Positions 50,823 through 56,800 of a stretch of 64,000 nucleotides of DNA are shown in pieces. The stretch is from Liolophura sinensis (lineage: Eukaryota > Mollusca > Polyplacophora > Chitonida > Chitonidae). A program made the position numbers and the translations under genes. Location: contig NC_088302.1 in NCBI RefSeq assembly GCF_032854445.1, positions 41,978,191 to 42,042,190 of the forward strand. The letters run 5' to 3'. The notes under the pieces are model-generated. The model worked only from the letters and a program-made list of their open reading frames with translations. It was not told the DNA's origin and did no database searches. Within the stretch, counting starts at the first letter, position 1, and every line of letters begins with the position of its first letter.

Positions 50823-53800
50823 ATGAACGTGGTGTTGGCTGTGAAGCAGTATGTCTCCAAAATGATAGATGACAGTGGACCAGGCATGAAAGTCCTATTG
50901 ATGGATAAGGAAACGGTATTGTTTGAATTCAGCATTTAGTGATTTGCTTCATCCTCGTTTCCATGAAAGACATCATGTAATGATCATGTAAACAGTTTTT
51001 GGTAATTTTGTGATTTGAGTTGCTGTTCTGACGAATATTTCACTTATACGACGGTGGCCAGCATTACGGTGGGAGGAAACTGGGCAGATCAAATGGGTCT
51101 GGTCGAATGGGGGCGGTCGAATGGGGGCAGGGGTGTGGGTAACGGACCGAATGGGGGCTGGTGTATAGGGGCTCAGAGGGGTTACTATACTGGCCCAAAG
51201 AAACCATGCAGTATCTGGGTATATTCCACCTTGCCCTCACTGCAGAGACACGGTTCACTGTGCTTGGGATACTTTGGGGGTGTTCTCCGAGTACCGAGCA
51301 AGATCAACGATGACATATCGGTAATTTCTGAAAAAAATCGGACCGTTGACAGAAAATGAGCTTAAAATAGAAGGGTAATTAACAGGTATAAAAATACCCC
51401 CAAAATGAAATATTTTTTCAAAAATAAAAATGCTGATGCATGATTTTCTTCATTTAGCATAGAATAGTAATCTCTGTGTTATAGTTCCTTTTCATGTATC
51501 CTTTAAATACTGCTTGTCACATCACATTCAGAGATACTGATAGTTTCAATTGAAGCAGTCTCACATGGTCTATACTATATCTGTAGTCCAAGTTCAGCGA
51601 CTAGTAGGTCCAGAAAAAATAATTGGATACACCATATAAATCATGACTGTTCAAGCTCTAATCAGAGACCCTGATCTTCACACATGAGGTAAGGTACAAA
51701 TTGCAGTGCAAATAAACATTGCACATACCTCTAGCTGGTTAAATCCATGTCATATCATCACCTTTTCCCTTTGGCACCTAAATTTTATAAGGGTATGAAT
51801 GCAATAAAGTGTAACTTATAGCAAAAGAGCAGTCAGGCTATCCTGTCGCCGATGATTTCAAGACACTGAGCCACCATTTGCTTCGTTGTTTAACCAGGTC
51901 ACAAGGAAACTTGATTCATCACCAGCAGTCAAACTCTTGGACTTCATAATTCATAATTTACTTAATTTCAAAATATGTTACAAAAATATTGCAAAAATAA
52001 TCCAACAGACTGAAAAAAAAAGAACATGTTCCCAAAATTGTATTAAGCTGTTCAACCATTTGGCTCTCGTCTTGGAAACATGACCTTACCACAAATAACC
52101 TGGAGGCTTTTCTCTGAGAAATAATGCTTGATCAGATTACAATTACAAAAGTGTGTGAGGTGATGGGAAGGAGAGATGTTATGACATCCTTTGACCAGCT
52201 GGAGATAGTGTTTATTTGCGTTGCAGTCTCAGTGTGCTAGGACTAGTAAGTACGTGTGCACTGTCATATACATTGATATGTGTGTACATATTAGCTTTAT
52301 CAGGAAATGGTCTGCACTTGTTAGCTGCATGTTTATATCATCTTTTTATCATGACACATATCAACAAAGAGAGTTTTTGGGGGTTTAATGAACTCCAAGC
52401 ATTTAAGGAAAATGACCACAAATAGAATTGGATCAGACAAGATTATTTTTTAGCAAACAAAAATTTCTCCCAAGTAAATTTGAGATTGATAAACCTTGGT
52501 TTACATACAGGGTTTATAGCCTGTGAACATCGTAAATGAGGAAATCATTTACTGTTATTCAGGTCTCTATAGACATCAGTGAATTGAAAACCTGATAAAT
52601 ACATGTCCATATATGATGCTGGGCCCTCATTGCAAAAAACAATCACAAAAGATTTACATATGTACATGTGTCATTTTTGTATTTGTTCAGACGAGTGTAG
52701 TCAGCATGGTGTATGCCCAGTCTGAGATATTACAGAAGGAAGTGTATATGTTTGAGAGGATTGATTCTGGTGGTAGAGAGACCATGAAACATCTCAAGTG
52801 TATTGCCTTTATGCGGCCCACTAAGGAAAATGTAGAGATGCTTGCTCAAGAGCTGAGGACTCCTAAGTATGGACTATACTATGTCTGTAAGTGTTTGATG
52901 ATCATGGCTGTCATGTTTTTATGTTACTGTAGACATGTGCATATAATTATTATTCAGCATATTATTATTAGTACAATACTTCAGCAATTGTATTACTAGT
53001 ATTACATTGTATTTTTTGCAAGGTGTTTTTATGAAGGCATTATCCTGTGTAGACTGATAATATAATACTTCTTGTGAAACCCTGAAATTGGGCAATTTGA
53101 CCAGTGTGGTTTTGCATGAATTGCTCTGAAAGTTGCTCTTTCGTGTGTGTGAAAAGTTGAGAAATTAAGGTGAGTGGATTTTACCAATATATTTGTGTTT
53201 GTATTCAAGATTTCAGCAATGTGATCAGTAAGCAGGATGTCAAGACTCTGGCAGAGGCAGATGATCAGGAAGTGGTGAGGGAAGTACAGGTGAGCTGGAG
53301 ATGATGAGTTGTTATCAGTGGTTATTGGACCACATGCTGTGATATACTGACAGTGATGAGGGAAGCACAGGTGAGCTGGAGATGATGTGTTGTTATCAGT
53401 GGTTATTGTGTCACATGCTGTTATATACTGATAGTGGTGTTGGAAGCACAGGTGAGCTGGAGGCGATGTGTTGTTATCAGTGGTTATTGGACCACATGCT
53501 GTTATATACTGATAGTGGTGTTGGAAGTACAGGTGAGGTGGAGATGATGTGTTGTTATCAGTGGTTATTGGACCACATGCTGTGATATACTGACAGTGAT
53601 GAGGGAAGAACAGGTTAGCTGGAGATGATGTGTTGTTATCACTGGTTATTGGACCACATGCTGTGATATACTGACAGTGATGAAGGAAGTACAGGTGAGC
53701 TGGAGATGATGTGTTGTTATCAGTGGTCATTGTGTCACATGCTGTGATATACTGACAGTGATGAGGGAAGTACAGGTGAGCTGGAGATGTGTTGTTATCA

Positions 53801-56800
53801 GTGGTTATTGTGCCACATGCTGTGATATACTGACAGTGATGAGGGAAGTACAGGTGAGGTGGAGATGATGTGTTGTTATCAGTGGTTATTGGACCACATG
53901 CTGTGATATGCTGACAGTGATGAGGGAAGTACAGGTGAGGTGGAGATGATGTGTTGTTATCAGTGGTCATTGTGTCACATGCTGTTATATACTGATAGTG
54001 GTGTTGGAAGTACAGGTGAGCTGGAGATGATGTGTTGTTATCAGTGGTTATTGGACCACATGCTGTGATATACTGACAGTGATGAAGGAAGTACAGGTGA
54101 GGTGGAGATGATGTGTTGTTATCAGTGGTCATTGTGTCACATGCTGTTATATACTGATAGTGGTGTTGGAAGTACAGGTGAGCTGGAGATGATGTGTTGT
54201 TATCAGTGGTTATTGGACCACATGCTGTGATATGCTGACAGTGATGAGGGAAGTACAGGTGAGCTGGAGATGATGTGTTGTTATCAGTGGTCATTGTGTC
54301 ACATGCTGTTATATACTGATAGTGGTGTTGGAAGTACAGGTGAGCTGGAGATGATGTGTTGTTATCAGTGGTCATTGTGTCACATGCTGTTATATACTGA
54401 TAGTGGTGTTGGAAGTACAGGTGAGCTGGAGATGATGTGTTGTTATCAGTGGTTATTGGACCACATGCTGTCATATACTGACAGTGATGAGGGAAGTACA
54501 GGTGAGCTGGAGATGATGTGTTGTTATCAGTGGTTATTGGACCACATGCTGTGATATACTGACAGTGGTGAGGGAAGTACAGGTGAGGTGGAGATGATGT
54601 GTTGTTATCAGTTGTCATTGGGCCACATGCTGTAATATACTGATAGTGGTGAGAGAAGTACAGGTGAACTGGAGGTGATGTGTTGTTATCGGTGGTCATT
54701 GGGCCACGTGCTGTCATATACTGACAGTGGTGAGGGAAGTACAGGGGAGCTGGAGGTGATGTGTTGTTTCATTATCAGTGGTCATTCTGCCACATGCTGT
54801 CATATACTGACAGTGGTGAGGGAAGTACAGGTGAGCTGGAGGTGATGTGTTGTTTCATTATCAGCAGTCATTGTGTCACATGCTGTAATACACTGACAGT
54901 GGTGAGGGAAGTACAGGAGGGCTGGAGGTGATGTCTTGTGTTGTTAACAGTGGTTATTGTGCCACATTCTGTAATATACTGATAGTGGTGAGGAAAGTAC
55001 AGGTGAGCTGGAGATGATGTGTTGTTTCATTATCAGTGGTCATTGTGCCACATGCTGTAATATACTGATAGTGGTGAGGGAAGTACTGGAGGGCTGGAGG
55101 TGATGTCTTGTGTTGTTATCAGTGGTCATTGAGCCATGTGCTGTCATATACGTACAGTGGTAAGAGAAGTACAGGTGAGCTGGAGATGATGTGTTGTTAT
55201 CAGTGGTCATTGGGCCATGTGCTGTCATATACTTACAGTGGTAAGAGAAGTACAGGTGAGCTGGAGATGATGTGTTGTTATCAGTGGTCATTGGACCACA
55301 TGCTGTCATATACTGACAGTGGTGAGGGAAGTACAGGGGAGCTGGAGGTGATGTCTTGTGTTGTTATCAGTGGTCATTGTGTCACATGCTGTCATATACT
55401 GACAATAGTGTTGGAAGTACAGGTGAGCTGGAGGTGATGTCTTGTGTCGTTATAAGCAGTCATTGGACCACAGGCTGTCATATACTGACAGTTGTGTAGG
55501 AAGTACAGGTGAGCTGGAGATGATGTCTTGTGTTGTTATCATGCTGTCATATACTGACAGTGGTGTTGGAAGTACAGGTGAGCTGGAGGTGATGTCTTGT
55601 GTTGTTATCAGTGATCATTATTAACACTAATGGCTTTTTTTGAATTACTCCAAGTTTTGACACTTTGAGAATATATGATAATCGTTATAAACTTGTGTAA
55701 TTTAAATTATGATATCATTCTGATTCCTCATGTGCAAATTTATGAATTCCTTTGTACTCACGGTAAAGTATATGGTGGTCATCTTAATATAAATTAAAAA
55801 GCATCTTGATTTTTTTTTTTTTTTTGCAGGAATTTTTTGCAGATTACATTGCTGTCAATCCACATCTGTTTTCACTGAACATCAGCCAGTGTTGTAAGGT
55901 ATGCCATCGACCCTAATGTTGTAGATAACTTTGACAAAGAGAAATAAGTGGACAAAGCTGGATAGAAAGCCTCTGTTTATATTAATGGCCGTGTTTGAAT
56001 CATAATATATAGCCTCATGTCTGGGGGGTCGTCAAGTACCAGTGAAAGAGTATTGGTATTCTCCAAGCTGTGTCTAATTTCTATCACCCATGAAATGGAG
56101 TAAGATATTTTATTCAAGTGTTCTTGAATGTGGTGAAATAGGTTAAATAAACAGGTTAAAGCTGAAATCCTTCTCTCTGTTACTAATATTCTTGTGACAA
56201 TAACATGAAATGGTCAACAGCACTTGGGTGTCTGTTCACTGAAGACAACTTGTCTGCCATCAATATGATGTTTATCTAGATGTGAGAAAGTTCATCAGTA
56301 ATTTGCCAGATGACAGTGGTTTTACCAGGGCACATGTATTATGCATAGATGTTCAAGATTTTTGATTGTTGACATTACAGGGGTTAAACTGGGAAACTCG
56401 CTCGCTGACGCGCACAGTCCAAGGTCTCACCTCAGTGCTGCTGTCCCTGAAGAAATGTCCAATGATCCGATACCAAAACTCCTCAGAGATGGCAAGACGC
56501 TTGGCTGAACTTGTGCGAGTAAGTCCAGGGATATGCCTTCAGTTCTGCTGCATGGATCTTCTGGAGCATAAAGCTTGAATAACTGGAGAGAAACGGGGGC
56601 TGCAGGTGATGGTGGGGGTTGCTCTGTATCAAGGTGACAGTTCACATCCACTTTGGGAAACGCATTGGAAATGTTGTATTATTGTTTTGTTTAAATATAT
56701 TTTTGAAAGCAACATGTACAGACTACTTTTGAACTAGTTTGTTGATCTTCAAGTCCCTTGTCATTTGAACATTTCAGATCAATATGTTATGTCATTGCCC

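What the first reader, a model, noticed from the sequence alone, without database searches (positions are those of the whole stretch)
53275..55620. Minisatellite that repeats an exon end with its splice donor about 28 times in VPS45
The sequence shows the array starting inside exon 3: each 81-bp unit opens with the exon's last 15 bases and an intact CAG|GTGAGC donor. The spliceosome therefore meets many equivalent 5' splice sites after a constitutive exon. Use of any downstream donor would add in-frame multiples of 81 bases, but the first added codons (GTG AGC TGG AGA TGA) contain a stop, so those products would be truncated or degraded. Copy number could thus tune VPS45 expression, or the first donor may be enforced by another signal. 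I know of no described example in this gene; function is inference.
Basis: partly seen in the sequence, partly recalled or inferred. Interest (0 to 1): 0.72.

Follow-up and report, generated by a model that had tools for sequence, protein, structure and literature searches.

The report
Splice-donor minisatellite in VPS45 intron
A short piece spanning the end of a VPS45 exon and its splice signal has been copied head to tail 28 more times into the next intron; it looks like a large example of the amphioxus minisatellites called "mirages", which are reported not to disturb normal splicing.

Summary
The array is real: 53271 to about 55610, with 29 donor positions, the true exon 3 donor at 53289 plus 28 copies. 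The gene is VPS45; exon 3 is 53210-53289 and intron 3 is 53290-55829, phase 0. Each unit opens with 19 exonic bases, not 15. Spacing is 81 bp in 19 of 28 intervals, 86 in 7, 78 and 69 once each. GT survives in 25 of 29; 22 of 28 copies score at least as high as the true donor on an approximate matrix. Use of a copied donor reads VSWR-stop, 127 residues.

A smaller, decayed example sits on the SMC5 exon ending at 31250. This is the anatomy of amphioxus "mirages" (Adh3, globins, TnC, PGBD5), reported not to interfere with splicing, and of the human CBS 31-bp VNTR. Donor columns are no better kept than the rest of the unit.

Best reading: a large neutral mirage whose first donor is enforced by exon definition. 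Copy-number tuning is not excluded.

The parts
53210..53289 (+). VPS45 exon 3 (80 nt); ends ...GTG AGG GAA GTA CAG, phase 0
   Evidence: tblastn with a recalled human VPS45 probe plus GT-AG junction search; bases read
53287..53295 (+). true donor CAG|GTGAGC, positions -3 to +6; score 10.8 against a median of 8.5 for the 12 mapped VPS45 donors
53271..55610 (+). minisatellite array: 29 units, each 19 exonic nt plus mostly 62 or 67 intronic nt; units 1-16 homogeneous, units 17-29 more diverged and with an 86-bp subtype from unit 19 on
55611..55829 (+). unique 3' remainder of intron 3, ending in a long T run and TTGCAG (acceptor score 20.0; the 12 mapped VPS45 acceptors, itself included, have a median of 9.2)
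55830..55898 (+). VPS45 exon 4 ([23 protein letters not shown])
31121..31267 (-). second boundary-spanning array, in SMC5: 29-bp unit, about 5 copies, true donor after 31250; copies decayed
   Evidence: SMC5 identity

Best explanation
It is a mirage-type minisatellite. A stretch holding the last 19 nt of VPS45 exon 3, its donor and about 62 nt of intron was duplicated in tandem and grew to 29 units by repeated block duplication (unequal exchange, conversion or slippage). The array makes up most of intron 3 (2,321 of 2,540 nt). Inferred: splicing still uses the first donor at 53289, because exon definition pairs the exon 3 acceptor with the nearest strong donor and because only that donor has the other 61 nt of exon 3 beside it. 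The copied donors are unselected passengers; occasional use would give a frame ending after 127 residues, which nonsense-mediated decay should remove. Shown: array, unit limits, donor scores, stop, internal block duplications. Inferred: donor choice, decay, neutrality in the animal, and the organism (amphioxus).
For: Similarity between exon and units begins sharply at -19. The exon reads EVQ|EF as in the recalled human VPS45, so the exon is the source and not the product; its 19 nt are unchanged in units 17, 19, 20, 21 and 26. Block turnover: six exact repeats of 100 nt or more (147, 126, 126, 124, 108, 108 nt), all at offsets that are multiples of 81. Nearest-unit identity averages 0.974 in units 1-16 and 0.906 in units 17-28 (unit 29 left out because its row runs past the end of the array). 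The donor 9-mer is no better conserved than the rest: 37 of 73 nine-base stretches are as conserved or more with all 29 units, 44 of 73 with copies 2-28 only. The SMC5 exon ending at 31250 carries a 29-bp boundary array in the same window. Published mirages share this anatomy, and Adh3 data and globin RT-PCR are said to suggest regular splicing (passages of PMC3087553; PMC3902484).
Against: No RNA was available. 22 of 28 copied donors score at least as high as the true one, and predicted local accessibility does not single out the first (0.005; copies 0.0004-0.066, median 0.004), so sequence alone does not explain why the first donor should win. Eight of 192 AG sites in the array score above the weakest mapped VPS45 acceptor (4.4), though none reaches the median, so an exon made inside the array is not excluded. 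Only 2 of 51 tested splice sites carry boundary copies, and 2 of 20 arrays at exon edges is not a significant excess over random placement (mean 0.49, P = 0.085). The organism is not identified by any search.
Confidence: 0.8

Rival explanations
1. Copy-number rheostat: a fraction of transcripts uses copied donors, all end at VSWR-stop and are degraded, so array length sets VPS45 output.
For: 22 of 28 copied donors score as high as the true one or higher, and extension products end in a stop. The human CBS 31-bp VNTR spans the exon 13-intron 13 boundary, and a paper title seen in reference lists ties it to reduced CBS activity.
Against: Donor columns are not preferentially conserved. Published amphioxus mirages are reported not to interfere with regular splicing. 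Only the first two copies keep exon 3 under about 250 nt (80+81k, arithmetic).
Confidence: 0.12
2. Intron-side donors are used: one of the last copies, about 250 nt from the acceptor, is preferred by intron definition, and the junction given here is wrong or minor.
For: Donors 27-29 are intact; the last leaves a 252-nt intron (arithmetic coordinates). A passage of PMC5585400 says enhancers between competing donors favour the intron-proximal one.
Against: It would put a stop after residue 127 in a conserved housekeeping protein; the 53289|55830 junction restores the EVQ|EF reading; the 12 mapped VPS45 introns are 310-2540 nt.
Confidence: 0.03
3. Exon birth: an acceptor-like site inside the array is used with a downstream copied donor, giving an extra exon between exons 3 and 4, as the mirage model for intron gain proposes.
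For: Eight acceptor-like sites in units 19-27 score 6.6-8.6, above the weakest mapped VPS45 acceptor at 4.4, and most units downstream of them keep a donor.
Against: None reaches the acceptor median of 9.2, and exons 3 and 4 join in frame without it.
Confidence: 0.03
4. Assembly artefact: the array length, or the array itself, is a product of misassembly.
For: The PGBD5 paper reports different repeat numbers for the same lancelet arrays in two versions of the sequence, so copy number here may be off.
Against: The units differ from each other and grade in divergence along the array, which is not what simple stutter would give (inference).
Confidence: 0.02

Closest known systems
Amphioxus mirages (Adh3; globins BflGb6 and BflGb9; TnC; PGBD5)
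   Same: Tandem units spanning an exon-intron boundary; splice signals in many but not all units; concerted evolution inside the cluster; stated unit sizes of 10-72 bp (Adh3), 60 and 108 bp (PGBD5) and 150-160 bp (globins) bracket the 81 bp here (passages).
   Different: Different gene; 29 donor positions here against 3 and 6 units in the two BflGb6 haplotypes and 2-7 units in the PGBD5 arrays. Adh3 copy numbers were not seen, because the original paper is not held.
Human CBS 31-bp VNTR, c.1444_1467+7(16_21)
   Same: Unit spans the end of exon 13 and the start of intron 13, repeated 16-21 times, polymorphic (passages of PMC2630376; table of PMC1395315).
   Different: 24 exonic plus 7 intronic bases per unit (from the notation), 31-bp period; an effect on activity is claimed in a paper title there, none is shown here.
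Intron gain by tandem duplication across an intron-exon boundary (potato RdRp; mirage model for globins)
   Same: Tandem copying of boundary sequence supplies ready splice signals (abstract of PMC4974935; passages of PMC3087553).
   Different: No new intron or exon is shown here: exons 3 and 4 join in frame without one. It is not excluded: 8 of 192 AG sites in the array score above the weakest mapped VPS45 acceptor.

Membership tests
Amphioxus mirage minisatellite | tandem array of minisatellite-size units | tested here: met
   29 units, mostly 81 bp
Amphioxus mirage minisatellite | unit spans an exon-intron boundary with its splice signal | tested here: met
   19 exonic nt + donor + intron; 25 of 29 keep GT
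Amphioxus mirage minisatellite | concerted evolution inside the cluster, cluster edges left out of it | tested here: inconclusive
   Nearest-unit identity 0.94-0.99 in units 2-16; unit 27 is 0.85; the lower values of units 28 (0.74) and 29 (0.72) owe to a 17-nt deletion and to a row running past the array. The 5' edge unit is not diverged (0.975)
Amphioxus mirage minisatellite | regular splicing not disturbed | not testable with these tools
   no RNA; only the protein reading supports the first donor
Amphioxus mirage minisatellite | length polymorphism, somatic instability | not testable with these tools
   one sequence only; exact block repeats up to 147 nt suggest recent turnover
Amphioxus mirage minisatellite | found in a cephalochordate genome | not testable with these tools
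   no genome is held for the window; a scan of one collection, genome contigs (prokaryotes), found no relative of the window's VPS45; amphioxus is inferred
Copy-number-dependent boundary VNTR (CBS type) | copy number correlates with gene activity | not testable with these tools
   needs genotypes and RNA

The most novel reading that the evidence does not exclude
The array is a working rheostat: individuals, and perhaps somatic cells, differ in the number of strong copied donors beside exon 3, a corresponding share of VPS45 transcripts takes the VSWR-stop route and is degraded, and hypervariable array length sets the dose of a membrane-traffic gene.
Probability: 0.1. Interest if true: 0.65.

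Novelty: new member of a known kind. Interest (0 to 1): 0.33.

Why it matters
It is a natural test of how a spliceosome chooses among many near-identical 5' splice sites: 22 of 28 copies match or beat the true donor on a donor matrix, local folding does not single out the true one, and any extension of exon 3 gives the same recognisable stop. If the species is amphioxus it adds VPS45 and SMC5 to the mirage list; if not, it would extend mirages beyond cephalochordates.

Tried and rejected
Donor hidden or exposed by RNA structure: rejected as the discriminator; the accessibility of the first donor lies within the range of the copies.

Copied donors under purifying selection: no support (37 of 73 nine-base stretches as conserved or more; 42 to 44 of 73 when the end units are left out). 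Copied donors purged next to the exon: not seen; the 4 losses of GT are all at unit 19 or later, with unit 5 weakened (6.4).

Boundary arrays as a significant excess: not shown (P = 0.085). That test used 20 arrays: the 31 TRF rows merge to 23 places, of which I left out three short ones (28211-28243, 48218-48242, 51101-51128). Its SMC5 exon set held some approximate ends, among them a donor at 23176 that searches place at 23140. Boundary copies at other splice sites: none at 49 of 51 tested (37, 14; some sites read by eye, two donors weak, 45631 and 50915). That scan was ungapped, 40 nt, within 400 nt, and blind to periods under 25 nt. In it 300 to 334 of 2000 random window positions also had a good copy nearby, since the 20 arrays fill 10,649 of 64,000 bases; a nearby copy is therefore not rare by itself.

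Pfam found Sec1, tubulin and glutaredoxin domains in 5 of 10 pieces; the 5 SMC5 pieces had no Pfam match at E 0.001, and SMC5 rests on the PDB hit of one exon and the recalled probe. Rfam at gathering scores and ARAGORN found nothing in the window. A scan of genome contigs for the window's VPS45 found no relative; viral contigs was not scanned.

Papers: passages of PMC3087553, PMC3902484, PMC2630376, PMC1395315 and PMC5585400; reference titles only of PMC5188458; abstract of PMC4974935. Other papers appear only as search listings. One search on donor competition gave only indirect material.

The splice matrices hold approximate frequencies from recall; scores are relative only.

Full report
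What is there. The array begins 19 nt before the end of VPS45 exon 3 and runs to about 55610. Anchoring on the donor motif gives 29 positions, 53289 to 55577, and 28 intervals: 19 of 81 bp, 7 of 86, one of 78, one of 69. A motif search finds these 29 and no other copy in the window, against 0.13 expected from shuffles. Exon and unit consensus agree at all 19 positions from -19 to -1 and at 7 of 21 before that. GT is kept in 25 of 29; units 19, 21, 23 and 26 have lost it.

Gene context. Pfam finds Sec1 in the three VPS45 pieces given; phmmer against PDB gives Vps45 as the best hit of exons 1-2. With a recalled human probe I mapped 13 exons and 12 introns. The joined translation is 541 residues without a stop, its C-terminus not completed, and 74% identical to the probe (400 of 540). 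Intron 3 is 2540 nt, the longest of the 12; 2,321 nt of it are array. SMC5 lies on the other strand (PDB hit of one exon; exons; no Pfam match in five pieces).

Donor strength and consequence. On an approximate donor matrix the true donor scores 10.8 (12 VPS45 donors: median 8.5, range 2.5-12.2); 22 of 28 copies score as high or higher, two score below zero. Translation through donors 2, 3, 28 and 29 stops after residue 127...REVQVSWR*.

How the array evolved. Units 2-16 are alike (mean pairwise identity 0.916), units 17-28 less (0.817); six exact repeats of 100 nt or more reach 147 nt, at offsets of 81, 162, 243, 324 and 405. Nearest-unit identity is 0.974 in units 1-16 and 0.906 in units 17-28; the figure of 0.892 for units 17-29 is lowered by unit 29, whose row runs past the array. 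The true exon end is unchanged in units 17, 19, 20, 21 and 26, all in the diverged half, which suggests that this half is older and that the 5' half was re-expanded from variant units (inference). Donor columns vary about as much as the rest: diversity 0.096 for the donor 9-mer, 0.135 for the exon part before it, 0.119 for the intron beyond, and 37 of 73 nine-base stretches at or below the donor's value; without unit 29 the figures are 0.099, 0.134, 0.104 and 42 of 73. That is what unselected hitch-hiking predicts.

A second case. The SMC5 exon ending at 31250 (- strand) runs into a 29-bp array of about five units, 31121-31267; a 34/40 match to its boundary lies 29 nt downstream. In register, one of four copies keeps a donor-like site (7.8, against 9.4 for the true donor; the others -0.5, -13.8, -7.6); one of these has a weak GT two bases out of register (3.0). 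The other 49 of 51 tested splice sites (VPS45, SMC5, tubulin, glutaredoxin) show no such copy. Two of 20 arrays at exon edges is not a significant excess (P = 0.085).

Comparison with the known. [quoted passage not shown] PMC3902484 (passages) reports 60- and 108-bp arrays at PGBD5 splice sites in lancelet, with repeat numbers differing between sequence versions, and cites TnC as a further case. The original Adh3 paper is not held. Human CBS carries a boundary VNTR of 16-21 copies, listed as exon 13-intron 13; a paper title seen in reference lists ties it to reduced activity. One search found no paper on VPS45 with such arrays.

Mechanism. Most likely the first donor is used because exon definition pairs the exon 3 acceptor with the nearest strong donor, and only that donor is joined to the rest of exon 3. 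This is inference. Local folding does not discriminate. Two results leave room for other outcomes: a passage of PMC5585400 says that enhancers between two competing donors promote the intron-proximal one, which the repeated exon ends might do; and 8 of 192 AG sites in the array, all between 54779 and 55460, score above the weakest mapped VPS45 acceptor, none above the median, so an exon inside the array is possible.

Verdict. The regulatory idea is open and testable.

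Noticed in passing
31121-31267 (-): Boundary-spanning 29-bp array at an SMC5 exon end; copies decayed.
   Followed up: yes
53029-54768 (-), 18437-19216 (-), 19328-20104 (-): Long open frames (579, 259 and 258 aa) that look like by-products of arrays with periods of 81 and 111 bp, both multiples of three; a trap for gene prediction.
   Followed up: no
18455-21501: 111-bp array, 27.4 copies, 96% matches, in the SMC5 intron between the exon ending at 23140 and the exon starting at 17399.
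   Followed up: no
42496-43061: 52-bp array whose + strand units carry CAG|GTGAGA-like sites, on the strand opposite to SMC5 and not at a mapped exon edge.
   Followed up: no
4975-5355 (-), 11916-12413, 14722-15066 (-): Open frames sharing stretches such as AVAVSSS..H.GFL or QHYGGRKP-like words, perhaps fragments of a dispersed element.
   Followed up: no
49248-50823: SMC5 (-) and VPS45 (+) are head to head; the 5' part of SMC5 beyond 49248 was not mapped.
   Followed up: no
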